Below, piece after piece: positions 20,945-51,964 of a DNA stretch of 64,000 bases. Location: NCBI RefSeq assembly GCF_037975245.1, contig NC_092572.1, positions 1,897,501-1,961,500 on the forward strand, given 5' to 3'. Numbering within the stretch: position 1 is the stretch's first letter; the number at the start of each line of letters is the position of its first letter. Position numbers and translations under genes: made by a program. The notes under the pieces were generated by a model. The model saw only the letters and a program-made list of their open reading frames with translations, ran no database searches and was not told the DNA's origin. The DNA is from Apostichopus japonicus (Eukaryota > Echinodermata > Holothuroidea > Aspidochirotida > Stichopodidae).

Positions 20945-23900
20945 CTAAGCGTTGTTCTCTTGTTCGCTTGTCCACTTCTCCCACTCTCCATTTTTGCATA
21001 AACGCTCATAAGAGGCATCTTCATTCTTGCGAAAAACTGTAAAATTAAAAGAACATTTTTAGATTTAAAACGTCATTACAAATATTTAACACCAAAGCAT
21101 TTACGTGTATTTCTTTATTTATTTTTTCTTTTCCTTTGATACAGATGTTCAATGGATTATTAGATAAAAGTATAAAAAGAGCTGATATTTAGTTAAAGCA
21201 AATATTGCTATACATCTTGTAACAATTTCTTATATTGATTAATTAATGAACCATGGCAGCACACATTTTCTCGTATGTATTCTTACATTTAGTTTATTTT
21301 CCAAGGTTATTCAATCATTTCAGTGTTAAATAAGAAACCGCTTAATTGTATAATGCATGCATTGCGTGGGGCCTCAAGTTATACGTTTTTCGAAATAACT
21401 TTACCTTACTTAAAATTAGTTTTGGTTTATGTTATTTTGAATATGTACCTTCAGTCTTTTCGATATCAACAATATCATGTAGTTCCTCTTGAGAAAGTCT
21501 TTCTGGGATTTCGCTGTCACAAAACCTTGGGAAAACGAAGAAGAGATATTGAACAGTATTAATCTTTTGCACACGTTGACTTCTCAAAGTATGTGTGTTA
21601 CTTTTTATCGTTGGTTGATTATAAAACCTACAGACAACGAACGTCAAACTTCTTTAGCACAATATTATGCCATACTGTGCCATGATTTGTTTCTGAAACG
21701 ACAACATGTTCATGCAAAGTATAACACATAATAGACTTTAATACGAATATTAGCTTTAACATTTTCCAAAGCAAATCTCAATCAATTTGGAGGAAAAATA
21801 AAATCGTTAAAAAGTCTCTCATAATGAAGTTTGATGCCGCCAATTTTAGAGTTCAACATGTCTCAATTTTGGGTGTGAAGGCTTATAAACAATAATTATA
21901 ACATTACTTTCTTTATTGATTTTAAGGGGAATCTTTTTCATTTAGCTCTTTATAGGAAGACATGAAACAGTATAGTGTTCCGTTTATTTGGTTCTATGTT
22001 AATGACGGTTACATAATTTTTTGGGCGAAAAAATACACTTTAGCTATATCAGCTGTGAACAATGTCAATTTGTGTACTTAGTTTCATTCTTAGCGGACAC
22101 GACAAGATAGGACATTGGTCTATACATCATCAGTTTAGTTATATATGGTTGCTTTATAAATGAAAACTTTGCTTGTTAAAAAACCCGTAGCGATACCTAT
22201 GCTAGACAATACTTTAGAGAGAATTAATATAAAACTCATGAGAAGAAAAGAAATAATTCAAGCGTCACTCACTTTATTTTTTTCGTCGTTTGTGGAACCT
22301 TTTCCATCACAGCTTTGAATTTAGCTTTGTCTGCTAAATGGACCCCGTGAAAGACAAGCCGATCACGGATGCTCGGTAAACTGCTCAATCGAACAATTGG
22401 TAAGTCTCCATATATCTCCAAAGATTCAATCGTGATCTGTTGGCCCAAAGTATTAATATCAGTGTATATTTATTTGTTTCGGCAAACCGTATTTTATCTT
22501 AGACTGTTTTTTTCACCGTTGTTATTGCGGGTAATTTGCTTTGATTCACATTAATGAGAATATGTGTGCTACAAGTTAAATGCAACAATGGTGGTAAACC
22601 AAGCGACGTATCTGATGAAGCTATTAGGAGAATCGATTGGAATTGACGTCATTCTTGATGATTACACTTTTACAGTCAATCAAGATACTTCATACCGACA
22701 TATATAAAAAAAAACGTCTAGTCAACATTTGGAGCCGACCGTCAGCTCAAACCGTCAAATTGTAGAAAGAAGAAACTTAACAAGCTGTTCATCTACTGCA
22801 ATTATTTAAATATAGTTACATATTATTAAATACAATATAATGCTGCCAAGATCGTCAAGGCGGCCACAGACGCAACCACTAAGGACACATTTCAGCTAGA
22901 TGATAGACAGACAATATAACTGGCCCGATGAACATTCACTGGCATAAAGTACATAGGAAAAAGGGATAAAACATGAAAGGAGAGATATAGCAATAGTTAT
23001 CGAGACGAATTGAGACTAATAATTAAAAAATGATAATTTCTTTTTTTGTTTACCCACATGAATTCAGTATGACAACAACTCACATTATCTACTAGAAAAG
23101 CAAGTTTGCATGAGAAGCAATAATGCTCATCGGATAATTCAAAGCAGGATGCTAACACATGCTTTCGTTTAAGAAAATCAAATTCTTTTCTTTTCTAACT
23201 ATTTAATATAATACAATATTTGATACACCGTTTATACCCTTTAGGTTCTTTACTAGGTACAAAATGCTAACGTAAAATATGAATGTGTTAGCAACTTGAG
23301 GAAATCTAGAAATGGCTTAATCCTTACTTCTGTCTTCTTGCAACTCTTCAACAAGTGCAATATTGCGTCTTGGTAATATTCTTCTGTGCTATGATTGAAC
23401 ACCACCTTCTCCAAATGTAACATGTCTGCATGTTCTTTGTATTTCTCTTCATCTAGCGTTCCCACTTCCAGTAAACATGCTATTAGATCGCATTTACCGA
23501 CTTCCAAAAGATTATTGATTGCCTTAAGCTTGTTTTCAAAGAACAGAAACAAATTTTTTTCCAGCATTGTATTGTCTACCCTGTTTGTATGTAAATAAAT
23601 CGAAGCAAACAAGCGAGCAATTAATGGAGATCTTGTAATATAATCTTTACAATTAGAAACAGTTCTCATCTGAGATTGCCAATTTTCCAAAATATCTGCA
23701 ACAATTTTGTAATTCAAGGGTCTCTCCTCGGGATTAGGTGTTTGGTCTTTCCATTCCTTTTGCTTTTCCTCTAACATGCTGTACACCTCGATGTTTTCCT
23801 TTTTTTTTTGGTTTTCCTTCTCTTGCCAAAATCTTTCAAAAAACGCATTTCTTTGGATTTCGGTAAATCCGAGAACGTCTACCCTTGTGTAAGGTTTGCT

Positions 23901-26900
23901 CATAACTTTCAAATCCTTGTCAATGTTACGAGAGGTTACCCAAAGTTTCATTTTTCTAAAGTTACCAATATTACCCTTCAAGATATGCTCCACAGGTAGC
24001 CTCTTCTCACTGACTACATTCGATATATTATTTTTATTATTATTATTATGAAGTCTTGACCAATTGCTAACTCCATCTAACATTACAATGCTATCTTTCC
24101 TTTCTAATTCCAAAATTAAACTATTAGTTTCTTCAACAGAGTTTTCGCGGTTCAACAGTTTCATGAGTTCATCCAATATACAAGCGTCTTTGGAAAGATA
24201 CTTGAGCTGAAGGTAAATGAGAATAATATCTTTTAGAATGTCTCCATTCTGCCACTTTCTTGATATGTCCCGAAATAAATGTGATTTGCCAATACCAGGC
24301 TCGCCAATAAATAATACTCTGTTATCCCGCTCGTCCCTGGATAATGCCTCAAGCAGCTTATAGGTATTATTAACACAAGATGTACCGTTGTCTTCGTACG
24401 TTATCGAGAACTGAGAATCACAACACCAGCTGTCACTGAATGAGACTTGTTTTAATTCTTCCAACACATTAGTCTGTTTTACTTCTTCCAACAACGTTCC
24501 TATCGAAAAGAATAGAAAAATAACCAACTTTTTTTAAATGACTTTGTAATGTATTTTTACCAAAAGTCTCCCTCAAACTCAGGCAACACAAACAGACTAA
24601 GTATCATTTATTGCTTCAATATTTGATAATTAAAAAGAGGCCATTAACGATCTCTTAAATTTATTCCTCTGGTTTCTATTCACCCACAAAATTAACAAAC
24701 AAAAAAACAGAGCAAATAAATGATGCCATAACCTAATTTTGTATTTGAAAAGTGCATTAAGGTTCAACAGGCATTTGAAAGAACATGAACTAATCGATGC
24801 GAGTCCTATTACAATTCATAAAAAAAGAACGTTCAATTGTACCTTCTAAATATATTCTGGTATGGGCATTCGCAAAAAAAAAAAAAAAATGAGAGGCGGC
24901 AAGCGCACTTCCATTGTCAAAAACCGATTAACTGTCCAAAACATAAACTTATTAACCAATTAACCGTCTACATTGAATTGTGTATTGTCGTGGGGCATGG
25001 GTAAATGATGTTCTAAGAGGGACAGCAATATCTACCAGATTCCAAGTCTTTGTTTAACTATTAGATACCTCCAGCCGTCCGGACATGGCTCTCACGGGCT
25101 TTGTCTGTTATGGACAGTGTCTAGAATTTACATTATGGTGATTTTTAGGAGAGCGTTTCTTTTCTGTTTTCTTTTCGTTTTGTGAAGGCCGATTTCAGTG
25201 GATGGGTGCATTTTCAAAACCTATTACCAGGTCGCTGTACTGGCTGCATTGGCCTAGCCACGTTGCTTTCTAGTGATCATTCTCTAGATTTTGGGTGAGT
25301 ACCGCAACATTTATGACCATTTAATCAATTACAGTTCGATAACTACGTTAATCTTTGTAAGTTCGGCAGATGAAGCGACTTGGAACCTGGAAACATCTAT
25401 CAAAGAGGTGTGGAGTAGATCGATTTTGAGACTGTAGAATGAAGCCCCGGAAGTTCCAGCATAATCAGCTTTTGTATTATGCTGACAATTGCATAGCACA
25501 TAATTACATGTCAGAAAGATAAAGTACTCTTTAATACTGTGGAATATATTTCATACCCCGTACGATGAAATCAGATGAGCCGGGGGGGGGGGGCTCAGTG
25601 TCGTAAATAAATGTCAGAGAGAGTTATGGACATTCCCAGGAACGTACTCCTAGAAAGGGTGGGGGTCCTGGGGTATTCAGTTGTAACATTTTTTTCTTTT
25701 CATATATTTTTCTATAAGTGACTCATTAAAACTAAAAAGATTACTTAAATATATGTGTAGCCCCTATGGGGTCCAGAAGCCGTAGTACTTGTAGCGGGAA
25801 CACTTTGGCATAAGTTTTGCTCTAGTTCTCACCCCCCTCCCCCTCTAAAAAAGAATATTAGAGTAATCCTTCCTTAGTTCTACAGTCCATACAACTTTTA
25901 ATCATATGCAGAACGTAAGCAGTTGAAAATTCTTCAACATTGTATCAAAAATGACAATATCTTATAGTTTTGACATGCAATGACCGCTAGCTTTACCGTA
26001 ATTCTCACAAGGGAAAGTATGTACGCAGCTGGTAAAATCCCTACTATTAGGAAGATAATTATCACAAAACATTTTACAACCTCCCCCACTCCCGTAATAA
26101 AGATGGTGATTTTGCCCCTTGTTTATAGTTGTTATTATATTTGTTTAGTTGCCAAGTTAAACCAAAAATGATGACTTCAAGAAACTATTTACATTTTGGA
26201 ATTGCTACGTTATCTATATTTGCAACATTTAAATCACACGGAGTCGGTTGAATTGTCAAGTTATCTTAATATGTGATCATGAAATAAAATAGTACTACAA
26301 CCAATGTTTGAGATCATGTGTTATAGACTATACGTGACAACTCGTCAAGAACCGATGTAAGATTTACTAAGGAAGCAGTGGTGAATCTCATTCTTTCAAA
26401 TACGACTTAATAAAGTAAACGAATTTACATACTTAACCCAAGATATTACCTTGCCATCCACCGTGCCGCCGATGTAGCTTATAATAAAATATAGCTAAAG
26501 CAAAAAGAATTATCCCCACGACAGCCAAAACACACGAAACAATTACTTGCGTTGGAGAGCTCATCTGTTTCGTGTTGTCTTCATTGCATTTTTCTGAAAA
26601 GACATGCGTCACAAAGATGGAATGTTAGATTCACTCCTTTGTTGATGTTGACATTGTCCGAATATCTTGAAGTTAAGTGACTATTATTTTGTGATACCAC
26701 AAGCTCCATGTGTCAATTAACATCCTCGGATTCTTATCTGATCAGGTAAAATGATCAACACATCGCTTATATAATCGTGTAATACATATGTATTTCTTCC
26801 TACATGATAAATATATATATAAATTATGACAGTTGAAAAAAGAAATACATTTCTTTGTACTTAAATCAGGTTGCGTATTTTACTATATTCAATCGGGCTT

Positions 26901-28474
26901 TGATACACTTATGTAGCTGCAAATAAAGAAATGAACATGTGCATTTTGCATCACGTTTATCACTAAAGAACAAATATCTGTTATTTTTTCTATAACTGTA
27001 ATTAACTAACCATATCTTATTTTCAAGTTTACATATTGAATGTAATCAGTTTTATTACATGTATAAAATAATTTTTTACTAACACAATGGGTGCTCATCG
27101 TTTACAAGACTTACCTGATCGAATGTTAACTGTCTTATTCCCTATTTTCAACAACTCTCTATTGTAATAAACAGAGCAGTGAAATATGGCATCTTCTGCA
27201 CATTCTAATTCGAAGAGAACTGTAGTAGAAGTATTCCAGGTATCTGTTATGTTATTCTTGATCTCAAATGATGTCCTTTCGGTGATTGTAGTATTATGTC
27301 CTTCGACACTCCAATACAATGTAACATTCGGGCGTACATGTTCTATGTAACAAGTTAAACTAGTAGGATTGCTGGATTTAACTCTAATAATGCATTCATC
27401 GCAGTTAGAACAAGACTGGACGAGAGGACACGGAGGTGTCGGCGTAACTTCAAAAGAATAAAAACATATAAACGTGGATTTATGTTGGTTGCGACAATGC
27501 AATTTAGTTTAAAATTAATTGTAACAATAACAGTGAACGTAGAGTATTTGAATGAGTGGATCTAACTTCAACTGAAGATATATTTCCAAAATTGCATCTA
27601 AACTTTCTTTTACTTTTGTGAAGTTCAATGTTAATATAAATCTAGTTATGTAAGACAATGTGTGTGATGGAAAGTGCTACAAAGTTTGTCTACGCACATG
27701 AACTCTCCAAAAACAAAAGTCACAAATTATTAAATAGAAAGCTGATTAAACGTATGTCTTACTCTGAACATTCTGATGGAATATTTTTAGATATGAACAA
27801 TGCAGATATCAAGACCGAATCTTAAAAAGAAAAGAAAAGACAAAGACAAAGAAGTAACATGAAAATGCAAACACCAAGCATCATAATTGGTAAAATTCTC
27901 ACCTATAATCAAGACTGAAATAGACCGTCTCCACACGGTTCCGTTTTCAAATATTACAGCATATGTGTAAGAGGCCTCTTGTTCCAGCCTAGCATTGATA
28001 ATTTTCATATTACCTTCAGAGGTGATGTCATAATGGTCATCATCATACTTTTCTCCACCCTTTACACCATTCTCTAATCTAAGTATTGGTTGAGTCAGTG
28101 ATATTGATCCCTGGTACCAATAGTATTCCTCGACGTTACCGCCAACGTCACAGTATATGGTTTTGGTTTCCATTATCTCGACATGTTGATTCGTAGGACA
28201 TGTTTGGCAAAAACCTGCAGGTAATAGAACAAAATCTAAAATATTGTTGAAATATCGACGTTGTCCAAAATTTTCGAGAATATTACCCTATGTAGAAATA
28301 TTGATCTTTCTGTAAGGATTTCTTCAATGAAGCGTTTGCTACAGTCCTCGATTCAACTAATGTCGTGAAGGGTTCGGTTACTATTACGTAAGACCTTCCT
28401 ATTAACAGTATTAAAAGTACGTTACCTTGCACCACGAGGATGGACAGCATGAACAAAGACGAAAACATTATCAT
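20945..28474 (-). CDS. N1: Ig-Ig-transmembrane-NACHT receptor, 780 residues, complete
   Basis: Eight exons, all with GT-AG borders and matching phases, are (5' to 3' on the minus strand) 28426-28474, 27903-28214, 27115-27447, 26450-26593, 23328-24499, 22273-22436, 21449-21525 and 20945-21036. They total 2343 bases, exactly 781 codons with the stop. Residues 1-17 form a signal peptide (MIMFSSLFMLSILVVQG). Residues 17-121 are V-set-like Ig (YCDVG, YYWYQG, EASYTY). Residues 121-232 are a second Ig (SLTCY, LYWSVEG, IFHCSV). Residues about 248-269 are a transmembrane helix followed by basic residues (KLHRRH). Residues 280-670 hold a NACHT NTPase: Walker A GEPGIGKS at about 345-352, Walker B VMLDG near 418-422, sensor-like WVTSRN. 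Residues 671-780 are a tail of unknown fold. The second Ig and NACHT are clear; the V-set call rests on W and flanking motifs. A NACHT domain usually drives NTP-dependent oligomerisation; here it would be tethered under the membrane with an ectodomain outside. No death-fold domain was seen. Confidence 0.85.
23328..24499 (-). CDS. N1 NACHT exon (about 390 residues)
   Basis: A single large exon carries the whole NACHT core, as is common in invertebrate and fish NLR genes. In order it has VLFIGEPGIGKSHLFRDIS (P-loop), then LIYLQL, then DSIVMLDGVSNW (Walker B: the DG is kept but the following acidic pair is SN), then KLWVTSRN (sensor 1, TSR kept), then a helical region with SPLIARLFASIYLHT that resembles the winged-helix/superhelical part of NACHT proteins. 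It enters in phase 1 and leaves in phase 0 (GAA|GTAAGG), exactly like the N2 exon. Confidence 0.9.
24500..26449 (-). other. N1 intron between transmembrane and NACHT exons
   Basis: This is the longest N1 intron. It contains a poly-A tract near 24873, a run of 12 G near 25580, and GC-richer patches (25590-25680, 25760-25850) that look like decayed repeats. I saw no coding exon for a death-fold adaptor domain inside it. Confidence 0.6.
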
Positions 28475-37875: not shown

Positions 37876-40800
37876 TCATGAAGAGCTCTTAATTTTCCGT
37901 ATCCTGGGAATAAAAAAGAAACAAAAAACGTAAATATAAGAACGAATTCTTATTTTATTTACTTTTGCGCATTGTTCGAGTTTTCATTGATAAATAATGA
38001 GTAAATAACATGGAGGTAGTCACGTTTGCAAAGTAAATTGTAACCGCAGTGTTGAAATATATGATCAGTTGGAATATTGAAAGATTTGTGAAAAAAGAGA
38101 TTTATATAAGTAACAATCTGACCAGTATACTCGTCATTGACATCCTGTTGCGACTATTAAGATCAGTACTCTCATGAAGAACTGCATGCTATGCATTAGC
38201 ATACACCAAAGGCTAAAAACTTACCGTATTTTATTAGTATTTGCAATTTGTGTGTAATCTGGATCTTGCGAAAACCGAGGGTTGTAAAAGTCTACTGGAT
38301 TTTCAACCTTTGGTAAATAGCTAAGCAGACGGATCGGGTTATCATCATATATCTCCAACGAGTCGAGCTTTACCTGTTTGCATGAAATAATAGATTTACA
38401 TTTAATTACCATATTTCTATATATCTATATTAACGTCAGATGTGAATTAAAATAAATAGTTCTTTTATCTGAATTTTAAATAATGTAAACGACGCAGGGT
38501 AAATTCCATCATTTTCAGTTTCTTCTTTCTGGGATTTACTTAACTTCATAAGTACAAATATAATTCGGAGACTTTGATGCAACAAGATTTCTCTGTTGTA
38601 CCAAACGAGTAAAAAAGACACGGTTTTGTCTAAAATAATGTGTGTTTAACTCGTCAACATACAGTTTTATGTCTTAAACAAACAATCGCTTCGTTTTAAT
38701 TATATCGCAATGACAAAAAAATAAGATGAAAATTAGATCAATGTAGATATATAAACCACTTACACTTGTTTCATTGAGAGTCGTCAATAAAAGCAGTATC
38801 GCTTGTTTGTAGTAATCACTTGTGCTTTTTCTGAACACCAGCTTCCTCATTTGTAACTTTCTAGCATATAGTTTGTATTCCTCTTTGTCTTTTGTTCCTA
38901 CTTCTAGTAAACATGCTAATATATCAAAGTTTGTAGATTGCGTAATAAACGTGACGGTTTTACCCTCTTCAAAAAAATTGAAAAACTTTAGTTTTGTACT
39001 TCCGTTAGTATTTAAGTAGACTGACTGAAACAACTTAGCAATTAATGGAGAAATAGTGCGGTCAAGATTATCGTAAATGTTCTGATCCTTTTTAAAGTTA
39101 TCTAACATTTTTTGCAGAGGTGTTTCAGCAGCCCATCGTTGTCGTATTCCCTCTACAACTTTTAATATTTTCCACATTTTTCCATGCATCTCAATTCCGA
39201 AAAAGTCTTTCATTTGTTGTTTATTAAACCCCTGCAGTTTTACCCGAGTAGTATGTTCGTGAAAAAGTTCTTCATCATCGGAAGTTATCCAGATTTTCAT
39301 TTTCTCGTACTTGCTAACTTCAGGATCCAAAAGCTCTTCTACAGTTAGATTATGTTTATATACATTGTGAAGACTCGATGAAGTGATACTAAGCCTTGAC
39401 CAATTGTTAATTCCATCTAACATTACAATGCTTTTTTTACTTGTTAAATCATTGTGTAGTGTTTGGAAAGCTTCCTCAGATATTTTATATCTCAATTTTG
39501 TTAAGATTTCCTCCAATATATTAGCGCCTTTGGGAACATAATCAAGCTGAAGGTATATCAAAATATAATCTTGAAGAATTTCTCCATTCATCCACCTCCT
39601 TGCTATGTTCTGGAATAAGTGTGATTTGCCAATACCACGTTCTCCACAAAATAACACTCGTTTATAATGGTCGCCCCGGCAGAAATGGTGAAGAAGTATA
39701 TCGTCGTTGTTTGCTGCTATATTTCCTTGTCCACTTGTTATTTTATGCAACGTTATCTGGTAAGTGCTATCACTGCACCAAATTCCTCTTAAGGGAATGT
39801 AGCTCTGCTTTAAATCTCGTTTCAACGTACCTGTAATAGAATCGAACAATCGTAAACGTTTACAAAATTACATTGACTACTTTAATGATAGAGAAAAAAC
39901 CTAGCAAAAGCATGATACATAAGGAGACCTGAAGTATTCATTATAACACCCAATTAGCACGTCTCAACAACAGGAAGAAAACGGAACGAAAATTGGTATA
40001 CGTATGAACATGATAACTACTTAAGAGAAGTCACCTCTCGTATGGTAACACAGGGAACACATCGTATACGTGGTTGGGGAATTGCCCTACTGTGACATAA
40101 GCTAATATTAAGCCAGCTAATATGTATTTAGGGAACAACAACAAATTATAGTATGCAAAACTATTAAAACAGCTACCTTGTTTACGACACCACTTCCATA
40201 GTCCTAAGCAAAAGACCCCTGTTATTGGGATGCCACATATCACATCGATCAGAAATATGCTAGCCGTGATGATGTCTTCGTTAGCACGATTGTCTGATAA
40301 ATAAGATAGAAAGTCACTATTAAGAAGGCATTTATCCATCCACCAGCCATCCATCCAGCAAACCAGCCACATATACAAATACAAGTGATATTAACATGGT
40401 TACATCATACTGCTATCGTATTGTACCTTTTGCAGAGAAGCGCAAAAAAAAGAAGTGCAAATACTTATTAAATCGTTTCCCTTACGCTTCTGAAATGAAG
40501 ATGACATAACGATACAAAAATATGTTCAGATTTTGTAAACACACTATCCAGGAAGTCGAACAATTTTCTTATTATTGTTTAAGTAAACTGAAAATGCGTA
40601 ATACGAATCATTATCAAAGGGCTATAAACGTATTTAATTTGTAAGAAATGTCTTAAACTGTAGCTGTGCGCAGGGTGGATCACGTGGTTAATGTGCTCCT
40701 GTGTCACTCGTGTACACGTATGTTTGAATATATCTCATCCTATATTCCATGTATATATCCGTATATCTAGTTATCGGGTATCAGGTAATGTAGACATTTG

Positions 40801-42950
40801 CCTACTATGTACTACATTTTGTTTTGATAACTTAGTTGACTAATTACAGTATATTTACAGAATGGCCAATTGCATAAAACTTAACGTGCTTGCCGAACGG
40901 CAGGGAACTTCCTATCAACAGTAATTTCTAGAACATCAATATGTGCGGTCATACAGATACAACTAGACATGCACATATCTAATAGTGCTAATAATGATTC
41001 CGTTAGCAATGACGATGACATTGACGATGTGTTACATACATCGTGTAGTGCGAGGTTGGGTTGCTTGTATAACTTAAGCCCCTTAAATCATATATAAGAT
41101 TTTTTGATTAGCATGTTACGAGCTAGCTATGTATAAGCACGCATAAATGTCGTAAATTTTTCCTTTATATCTTGCAATGCATATATAATCCGATATGTTT
41201 ACATTTTCTGCATTTTGTTTACATATGTTCAAGACTGACTAATTGCAAAGTAACTACAATCAAAGAGAGATTCACTATTTACTGATATGACGTCATTCAC
41301 GTGACCAGCTCAACTCAAATTGCGGCAATTGTGCAATAGCGCATAGCTCAAGTCTCTAATTTCATACTGTCGATTCAATCTCCTAGTAAATAAAGTTACC
41401 ATCAAGAAAAAGGTGGGTGCAATAATACTACAATTTTAAAATGTGCAGAAATGTTAAAACGGGAGTTTATAAATAGCCTCTGTGAACATAAGTCGATGTC
41501 GCTTATACTCCAACAAATCGTTAGCAATCAATGCAAGCTGATGCATATTGGTAGTAGTAAACTTAAATGTGAGGAGTTGCAGGAGGTTTTCAATTGTTGA
41601 AAGAGACCTAGGTATCTACATTGACTCATCTTTGCAACCTTTTAAACATTGTCGCGAAGCTGCTAAAAGAGGAAATAGGGTCTTAGGTATGATCAAGAGG
41701 AACTTCAGTTTTCTTAAAGAGGACATAGTTGTTAGGCTATATAAGTAGTTGGTTAGGCCTCATATCGAGTATGCTGAGCAAGCTTGGAAACCATATTTTA
41801 CTAAGGATAAGGAAGTACGCAAAGAGGTCCAGAGGAGGGCTGTTAGGATGAATAGTTCTTTAAAGGGTGTTTCTTATTATATGCGGTTACAAATGTTGAA
41901 TCTCACCACACTAGAGCTTAGGAGGTTACGTGGTGACTTAATTCAGGTTTTCAAGCTTGTGTATGGTTTTGACAATTGATCCTTCACTGACTTTTTCATG
42001 TTTGCTAATAGTAGTTGTACCAGAGGTCATTGTCTTAAACTCCAAAAGACACAAAGTAGGATTAATAATCGGCATATTTTTTTTATTAGGGTTGTGAATG
42101 AGTGGAACGATTTGCCTGAGAAAGTTGTACTTGCAAGTAGTGTCAATGGGTTTAAGAATGCTTTGGACAAGCACTTTAAGCATTGTAATCGGGTCTGAGT
42201 GTTTGTCTTCAGTTTTTTTCCTTTCCATAGGGTCATTGATGGGGACTTGAGTGTCCGTCCTGATCCTATATTTCTACTAAACTAAACTAATAGGAAGCAT
42301 TAATCTATTAAACTTATATTTAAAAAATGGCCAAATAGGCGTTAAAAAGATAATTTACAAAAGAAAAGTCTGGTCTCATACCTACTTCTGCTACCATCGT
42401 CGTCATTGACGACATATGTCACGTGTGTTCCATTACATGTTTCTCTAGATAGGCATATGCCAAAGCAATGCTACACACTACAGATAAAACAAATCTAGCA
42501 ACTGATTCTATTTTATAAACATGTCCAATCTTAGTCATTTATAAACTCGACGACCATGCAAAATTGTTCTGACCATGATCTGAAATATAGTCTTGCCTAT
42601 ATCAAGCTACGATTAAACAGGAAGTTTGACAGAATGTACATGTGACTAATATAAAAACTTACCAAATGCACTTTGAATAGACATCTCTCCGTTGGTAATC
42701 TTCTGTTTAACTTTGTAGACTACAGTTTTAAACATAAAAGAAGTATATGTGTTATTATCCTTCTTGGTTTCTAGAGATGTCTCGCTGTATGTTGCTCGAG
42801 TTATTGTCACATTCGAAGACAAATGTTTGTTTAGGGACACTGTGTTAAAGTAACACGTTAAGCTGCTAGGTTGGGAAGTTTGAACTGTTATGATGAACTC
42901 GCCACAGGTATGGTCATATGTAAGCGCTATCACAGGTAATGTTGGAGTCA
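37876..42950 (-). CDS. N2: Ig-transmembrane-NACHT receptor, 5' end missing
   Basis: Minus-strand exons are 42663-42950 (Ig-like), 40177-40293 (transmembrane), 38764-39830 (NACHT), 38225-38373 (tail) and probably 37876-37903 (ending IRKIKSSS and a stop, after a strong polypyrimidine acceptor). Phases match N1 exon for exon through the fourth, and the sum stays in frame (549 codons with the stop). The NACHT exon has VLFCGERGIGKSHLF (Walker A), SIVMLDGINNW (Walker B) and KIWITSDDEE where N1 has TSRN. The Ig exon begins VTPTLPV and has PSSLTCYF, aligning with the second Ig of N1 (VTPTPPC, PTSLTCYI). It lacks the usual Trp and the second Cys, so its fold is doubtful. The transmembrane part is ASIFLIDVICGIPITGVFCL. 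No signal-peptide exon or first Ig exon was found upstream. Confidence 0.75.
41480..42290 (+). mobile_element. CR1-like LINE 3' fragment inside an N2 intron
   Basis: Plus-strand frames with a few stops encode the C-terminal part of a reverse transcriptase: ERDLGIYIDSSLQPFKHC, NRVLGMIKRNFSFLKED, LVRPHIEYAEQAWKPYF, VQRRAVRM, then VVNEWNDLPEKVVLASS and NGFKNALDKHF. The end at about 42240-42290 has a short TAAACTAAACTAA tail typical of 3' termini of this class. It is 5'-truncated and antisense to N2, within the intron between the Ig and transmembrane exons. Confidence 0.85.

Positions 42951-45226: not shown

Positions 45227-51964
<6,738 letters not shown>

What the first reader, a model, noticed from the sequence alone, without database searches (positions are those of the whole stretch)
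20945..28474. A complete Ig-Ig-transmembrane-NACHT receptor gene
Eight exons with canonical borders and fully compatible phases give a 2343-base frame: signal peptide, two Ig-like domains, one membrane helix, NACHT NTPase and tail. Described NLRs are cytosolic and carry CARD, PYD, death or similar N-terminal domains. Here an ectodomain and membrane anchor take that place, so an NLR engine could be driven directly by an extracellular ligand. I know of no described family with this plan.
Basis: partly seen in the sequence, partly recalled or inferred. Interest (0 to 1): 0.92.

Follow-up and report, generated by a model that had tools for sequence, protein, structure and literature searches.

The report
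Sea cucumber surface Ig–NACHT receptor family
The stretch holds a sea cucumber gene for a likely cell-surface immune receptor that joins two antibody-like domains to an internal NACHT module; that plan was already published for the same species, but this copy belongs to a large tandem family whose NACHT has lost residues normally needed to split ATP.

Summary
The gene model is confirmed: eight exons (28474..20945, - strand), 780 aa: signal peptide, V-set Ig, second Ig, one membrane helix, NACHT, tail. One gene, not two: exon 5 has no Met before its P-loop, and 8 of 8 paralogues examined keep the order Ig-Ig-TM-NACHT. No transcript was seen.

'No described family' is wrong. The genome matches the published Apostichopus japonicus assembly, and AjNLRC4 of that species (PMC8699970) is a membrane Ig-Ig-TM-NACHT receptor. 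I located AjNLRC4 by its printed primers; it is a distant relative on the other side of the NACHT tree.

New here: (i) 48 of 155 NACHT places have a related Ig exon upstream, 8.8 by shifting; (ii) the 23 NACHT places that one search found around this gene lack the first Walker B acid in 23 of 23 and the second in 22 of 23, whereas AjNLRC4 keeps both; (iii) both printed primers for AjNLRC4's intracellular part match a p62-like gene exactly, so the published NACHT-actin link needs rechecking.

The parts
28426..28474 (-). exon 1: start codon and signal peptide (MIMFSSLFMLSILVVQ)
   Evidence: found in L010 (100%) and L011 (81%), not detected (16 aa query) in the other six paralogues
27903..28214 (-). 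exon 2: Ig domain 1, V-set (residues 17-120)
   Evidence: 38-99% identity in 8 paralogues
27115..27447 (-). exon 3: Ig domain 2, C1/C2-like, cysteine-rich (residues 121-231)
26450..26593 (-). exon 4: stalk, membrane helix (about residues 244-264) and basic KLHRRH flank
23328..24499 (-). exon 5: NACHT (P-loop GEPGIGKS, degenerate Walker B MLDGVSNW, VTSR) and helical part (residues 280-670)
   Evidence: no Met before the P-loop
22273..22436 (-). exon 6: C-terminal tail
   Evidence: seen in 6 of 8 paralogues (L010-L013, L016, L017); in L014 and L015 only 1.5 kb beyond the NACHT match was held; the tail's only Pfam match is far below its cut-off
21449..21525 (-). exon 7: tail
   Evidence: L051, L052; weaker in L053
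20945..21036 (-). exon 8: tail and stop codon
   Evidence: L052; L051 with two single-base gaps that offset each other; weaker in L053
38764..39830 (-). second NACHT exon in the window (gene g2, 42% identical in the aligned part), P-loop GERGIGKS, Walker B MLDGINNW, sensor ITSD; borders set by eye
40177..40293 (-). membrane-helix exon of g2; borders set by eye
42663..42950 (-). Ig2-like exon of g2 (37.5% over 80 aa); second Ig cysteine apparently missing and no Ig1 exon found: g2 may be incomplete or decaying

Best explanation
A type I surface receptor of the sea cucumber Apostichopus japonicus, a divergent relative of AjNLRC4. Read from sequence: signal peptide, V-set Ig, C-type Ig, single membrane helix, NACHT with a consensus P-loop but without the Walker B acid pair, and a tail, in a large tandem family. 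Inferred: the Ig pair binds a microbial or self surface ligand outside the coelomocyte; ligand-driven clustering brings the NACHT modules together under the membrane; they bind ATP but hydrolyse it poorly or not at all, so they act as a nucleotide-held assembly platform rather than a cycling switch; the clustered receptor then drives uptake or death signalling, as reported for AjNLRC4 (internalisation with Vibrio, caspase-1 activation), possibly by pairing with sister receptors that keep the acids.
For: Gene model. Domains. Same order in 8 of 8 paralogues examined with conserved splice frames. dN/dS over eight chosen pairs: Ig1 0.09-0.63, Ig2 0.25-0.38 where defined, NACHT exon 0.36-0.74. Genome-wide pairing 48 of 155, none on the opposite strand, shifted control mean 8.76, maximum 16. 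Three of three further Ig pairs without a NACHT hit have a membrane-helix frame and a P-loop exon downstream (of two scanned, one passes the NACHT cut-off). Walker B loss on one side of a supported branch (99/97). AjNLRC4: membrane location, Ig binding of microbes, internalisation (PMC8699970, passages).
Against: No transcript or protein evidence for this gene. AjNLRC4 is only about 26% identical in the NACHT exon, so its function may not carry over. The published NACHT-actin evidence uses a fragment whose printed primers match a p62-like gene. PMC11932488 reports that AjNLRC4's Ig domains, not its NACHT, bind caspase-1, which is hard to square with Ig domains outside the cell. dN/dS exceeds 1 for the short TM exon in two pairs (2.12, 2.43) and for exon 6 in one (1.28). 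Three of 21 aligned cluster members also depart from the P-loop consensus (L022, L029, L030), which fits relaxed constraint in part of the cluster. The same interval holds Ig-NACHT copies that keep the second acid (L065-L067). ATP behaviour is predicted from motifs only.
Confidence: 0.6

Rival explanations
1. Pseudo-enzyme partner or decoy: the receptors without Walker B acids do not signal themselves but bind ligand and dampen or tune canonical Ig-NACHT receptors such as those of the AjNLRC4 branch.
For: First acid lost in 21 of 21 aligned cluster rows while 18 of 21 keep the P-loop consensus; canonical Ig-NACHT relatives exist in the same genome.
Against: The NACHT exon stays constrained (dN/dS 0.36-0.74), more than a mere decoy would need; no partner is known.
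Confidence: 0.2
2. Two neighbouring genes: an Ig-TM protein and a separate NACHT gene, joined only on paper.
For: A 1.95 kb gap between exons 4 and 5; no RNA seen here.
Against: Exon 5 has its P-loop at residue 66 and first Met at 113 (some paralogues do have an earlier Met, e.g. L011, L013, L015). Order kept in 8 of 8 paralogues examined, with TM-NACHT gaps as short as about 330 and 390 bp in L012 and L014. AjNLRC4 is reported as one protein with both parts (PMC8699970).
Confidence: 0.04
3. A decaying duplicate in a fast-evolving array.
For: Walker B loss; neighbour g2 looks incomplete; L027 has an in-frame stop and the L018/L031 copy is broken into pieces; L022, L029 and L030 have a damaged P-loop.
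Against: No stop in any matched exon of g1 and the eight paralogues; dN/dS 0.36-0.46 for g1's NACHT exon against L010, L011, L012 and L016; the SNW motif is kept in paralogues only 54-58% identical.
Confidence: 0.1
4. Inverted topology, NACHT outside and Ig inside, as claimed for AjNLR-new (PMC13133943).
For: A published claim for a related protein, based on TMHMM and antibodies (passages).
Against: Here the first hydrophobic stretch directly follows the start codon and looks like a signal peptide, and basic KLHRRH follows the helix, which puts the NACHT inside (positive-inside rule recalled). By eye the Ig part holds several N-x-S/T sites and paired cysteines.
Confidence: 0.04

Closest known systems
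AjNLRC4 (A. japonicus; MN607598 as cited in PMC11932488; PMC8699970)
   Same: Species; order Ig, Ig, TM, NACHT; no CARD or LRR reported; homologous Ig2 exon (28.6% over 91 aa, E 1.9e-5) and NACHT exon (25.7% over 175 aa, E 4e-7; E-values for a small local set)
   Different: Other side of the NACHT tree, on C16; an extra V-set region in the ectodomain; canonical Walker B DGFDE; longer open frame around NACHT (530 vs 426 aa)
AjNLR-new (PIK48001.1; PMC13133943)
   Same: Ig, TM and NACHT in one A. japonicus protein
Ig V-set NLRs of Chiridota heheva (PMC8913654)
   Same: NACHT protein with an Ig V-set domain in another holothuroid; V-set reported as not found in sea urchin NLRs
   Different: Counted among 6 NLRs 'with other domains'; no membrane part described in the passages I saw
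Vertebrate NLRP3, NLRP9, NLRC4
   Same: NACHT homology
   Different: Cytosolic, CARD/PYD and LRR, canonical Walker B (general knowledge, recalled)

Membership tests
AjNLRC4-type Ig-TM-NACHT receptors | N-terminal Ig domains, one membrane helix, then NACHT in one frame | tested here: met
   (sequence model; no transcript)
AjNLRC4-type Ig-TM-NACHT receptors | Sequence homology to AjNLRC4 in Ig and NACHT | tested here: met
   Ig2 28.6% E 1.9e-5; NACHT 25.7% E 4e-7; Ig1, TM and tail exons gave no hit
AjNLRC4-type Ig-TM-NACHT receptors | Same NACHT clade as AjNLRC4 | tested here: not met
   separated by a 100/100 branch; long branches flagged by the tool; so a related sub-family, not an orthologue
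AjNLRC4-type Ig-TM-NACHT receptors | Located on the coelomocyte membrane, binds microbes | not testable with these tools
   needs wet work
Metazoan NLR | NACHT NTPase of the STAND class | tested here: met
Metazoan NLR | C-terminal leucine-rich repeats | tested here: not met
   tail (exons 6-8) matches no LRR family in Pfam at E<=1
Hydrolysis-competent NACHT | Walker B acid pair (DGxDE) | tested here: not met
   DGVSN here; both acids absent in 20 of 21 aligned cluster rows

The most novel reading that the evidence does not exclude
Sea cucumbers have moved a large share of their NLR repertoire to the cell surface: dozens of tandem Ig-TM-NACHT genes in which a variable V-set ectodomain replaces the LRR sensor, including a whole sub-family whose NACHT has given up ATP hydrolysis and works as a ligand-clustered, ATP-held signalling platform.
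Probability: 0.35. Interest if true: 0.75.

Novelty: new variant of a known kind. Interest (0 to 1): 0.5.

Why it matters
It turns a published oddity (AjNLRC4) into a multigene family with at least two deeply split branches, so the question whether an NLR engine can be driven from outside the cell becomes testable by comparing branches with and without the Walker B acids. It also flags that the printed primers for the fragment behind the published NACHT-actin interaction match another gene.

Tried and rejected
Two-gene reading: rejected (no Met before the P-loop here, conserved order). Claim of an undescribed plan: rejected after the first literature search. Orphan Ig pairs as Ig-only genes: of the Ig pairs on C12 without a NACHT hit I fetched three (1717764, 1678009, 2031185); 3 of 3 have a membrane-helix frame and a P-loop exon downstream; of the two scanned, L065 passes the NACHT cut-off (30.5 vs 26.7 bits) and L067 does not (18.9); L066 was not scanned. 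Other such Ig places (1227434, 1822039, 2142705, 1259591 among them) were not fetched. Walker B was not scored in L003 and L006 (the pattern found nothing). C1-set label for Ig2: kept only as a lead, since C1, C2 and general Ig models compete at weak scores. A structure prediction was asked for and not run (tool switched off), so no fold comparison was made. The printed AjNLRC4 siRNA had 4 mismatches at best in the 7 kb AjNLRC4 locus, unexplained.
Full report
Observation. Internal borders are GT-AG, phases agree, and the joined frame is 2343 nt (780 aa). Hydropathy shows an N-terminal signal-like stretch and one strong helix around residues 244-264 followed by KLHRRH. Pfam finds NACHT at E=1.4e-11. 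Exon 2 is a V-set Ig: 9 of 9 aligned members match at E<=1, best 1.1e-10, though this gene alone is below the cut-off (18.0 vs 26 bits). Exon 3 matches C1-set: 8 of 9 members at E<=1, best 1.1e-5; this gene 21.2 bits against a cut-off of 21. A profile of exon 5 from 25 sequences of this genome matches solved NLRP9 and NLRP3 chains, best E=3.8e-10.

One gene or two. In this gene exon 5 has its P-loop at residue 66 and its first Met only at residue 113, so it cannot be translated alone with an intact NACHT; in L011, L013 and L015 an earlier Met exists. The search with exon 5 found 23 NACHT places in C12:1.13-2.21 Mb, all on one strand (my count after setting aside four second pieces of the same exons). 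For eight of these (L010-L017) I fetched the upstream DNA: exons 2, 3, 4 and 5 occur in order on the same strand in 8 of 8, exon 6 in 6 of 8 (with only 1.5 kb held downstream), exon 1 in 2 of 8. Borders of exons 2-4 are conserved and the matched pieces hold no stops (the extrapolated exon-3 end of L013 is not reliable); the exon 5 donor is GT in 3 and GC in 5 of the 8. Exons 7 and 8 are found in 3 of 3 downstream stretches fetched, weakly in L053; exon 8 of L051 has two offsetting single-base gaps. dN/dS over eight chosen, partly overlapping pairs: Ig1 0.09-0.63; Ig2 0.25-0.38 (undefined in one, dS 0); NACHT exon 0.36-0.74; TM exon 0.30-2.43 (undefined in one); exon 6 0.58-1.28 in six pairs. 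The Ig and NACHT parts are constrained; the two short exons are uninformative or relaxed.

Genome-wide. I took the 106 places and 49 of the 65 rows (leaving out 12 repeats and 4 second pieces): 155 NACHT places, against the 72 Ig2 hits and the 138 Ig1 hits. Within 15 kb, 48 of 155 have an Ig hit on the same strand upstream, 26 in the full Ig1-Ig2-NACHT order; 9 and 8 have Ig1 or Ig2 hits downstream on the same strand; none has one on the opposite strand (the arrays are largely one-directional, which helps that number). Shifting the NACHT places by 50-400 kb, 200 times, gives a mean of 8.76 and a maximum of 16. All hit lists are capped to the best candidates and tuned to this gene's Ig exons, so 48 is a lower bound: AjNLRC4 itself and g2 are not among them, and three Ig pairs without a NACHT hit proved to have a membrane-helix frame and a P-loop exon downstream.

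Which organism. The tool gives 671,581,487 bases in 35 contigs, with C16 at 46.04 Mb. The published A. japonicus assembly has 671.6 Mb, 34 scaffolds and 23 chromosomes of 18.21 to 46.02 Mb (PMC10344927, passages). The AjNLRC4 EX primers match the C16 locus with one mismatch each and both qPCR primers match it exactly. I take the genome as A. japonicus.

What is known. AjNLRC4 is described with Ig-like (31-132), Ig (251-353), TM (483-503, and a second predicted at 776-795) and NACHT (600-757), located on coelomocyte membranes, binding microbes through Ig, dimerising and internalising (PMC8699970: outline with abstract, passages, sections 7 and 35). PMC11932488 (passages) reports caspase-1 activation through AjNLRC4's Ig domains. 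PMC13133943 (outline with abstract, passages) reports AjNLR-new and speaks of screening 'these genes', so that there are several Ig-TM-NACHT genes is already implied. PMC8913654 (passages) lists Ig V-set NLRs in Chiridota heheva. One passage of PMC13228809 says that NLR CARD-type proteins and receptor tyrosine kinases were earlier found expanded in sea cucumber. PMC11508797 was seen in passages only. The 2020 cloning paper was seen only as a reference. In the listings and passages of the searches made here I saw no count of the Ig-NACHT family in A. japonicus and no mention of the Walker B loss; those searches cover open-licence PMC papers only.

How this gene differs. In the 21 cluster members of alignment A1 the first acid of the Walker B pair is absent in 21 of 21 and the second in 20 of 21 (L025 has D); 18 of 21 keep the P-loop consensus. 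Adding L018 and L027 gives 23 of 23 and 22 of 23. By contrast AjNLRC4 has DGFDE and six of six other scored NLR loci (L001, L002, L004, L005, L007, L008) have DGxDE (L003 and L006 gave no pattern match); of four more distant C12 loci, three have DGLDE and L035 has DGLHE; 11 of 11 NACHT places of a second Ig-NACHT cluster at C12:7.55-8.15 Mb have DGLDEL. The three extra loci, which lie inside the same 1.13-2.21 Mb interval but were not found and are not in the tree, read IDGLSDL or IDGFSEL: first acid lost, second kept. In a tree of 45 NACHT rows the 21 cluster rows form one side of a branch (99/97), and AjNLRC4 sits with L001-L008 beyond a 100/100 branch (the tool flagged long branches meeting, the root is drawn at the midpoint, and the Ig labels used there are lower bounds, for example g2/L021 was left unlabelled). 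That the acid pair is needed for hydrolysis is general knowledge of P-loop NTPases, not tested here.

A caution on published mechanism. The printed AjNLRC4-IN forward and reverse primers do not match the AjNLRC4 locus (10 and 11 mismatches at best); each has a single place in the genome at up to 2 mismatches, exact, at C14:1474164 and C14:1477150. These flank a gene with a ZZ zinc finger (E 1.3e-12) and, at the reverse primer, a UBA_5 domain (E 7.9e-18); that this pair marks p62/SQSTM1 is recalled knowledge. This may be a printing slip; if not, the actin-binding fragment was p62. The reported binding of caspase-1 by the Ig domains also sits badly with Ig domains on the outside.

Mechanism. Shown by sequence: architecture, family, constraint, motif loss. 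Inferred: outside ligand binding by the Ig pair, clustering, ATP-held NACHT assembly, coupling to uptake or death. I put about 0.9 on a single-pass surface Ig-NACHT protein and about 0.4 on the non-cycling platform mechanism; 0.6 is for the statement as a whole.

Noticed in passing
C14:1474164-1477174 (L048, L050): Both printed AjNLRC4-IN primers of PMC8699970 match a gene with ZZ and UBA_5 domains (p62/SQSTM1-like) exactly, not the AjNLRC4 locus.
   Followed up: yes
window 45227-51961, + strand: Divergent neighbour gene: signal peptide (45227-45284), cysteine-rich Ig-like exon (45371-45691, no Pfam match), membrane helix near 47306, then fragments weakly like a tyrosine kinase (E 0.034 and 0.13, below the cut-off) with no HRD motif seen by eye: possibly a receptor pseudokinase.
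   Followed up: partly
window 38764-42950, - strand: Second NACHT gene (g2) with a TM exon and an Ig2-like exon that seems to lack its second cysteine; no Ig1 exon found.
   Followed up: partly
C12:7.55-8.15 Mb: A second Ig-NACHT cluster with canonical Walker B (DGLDEL, 11 of 11 places read) and P-loop DLGYGKT.
   Followed up: partly
C12:1.67, 1.71 and 2.03 Mb (L065-L067): Ig-TM-NACHT-like genes of a third kind inside the same interval, with a long NACHT exon and Walker B IDGLSDL or IDGFSEL.
   Followed up: partly
L012, L013, L014, L015, L017, end of exon 5: Five of eight paralogues have a GC instead of a GT donor after the NACHT exon.
   Followed up: no
PMC8699970 Table 1, siAjNLRC4-1, against L049: The printed siRNA has 4 mismatches at best in the 7 kb AjNLRC4 locus fetched.
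   Followed up: no
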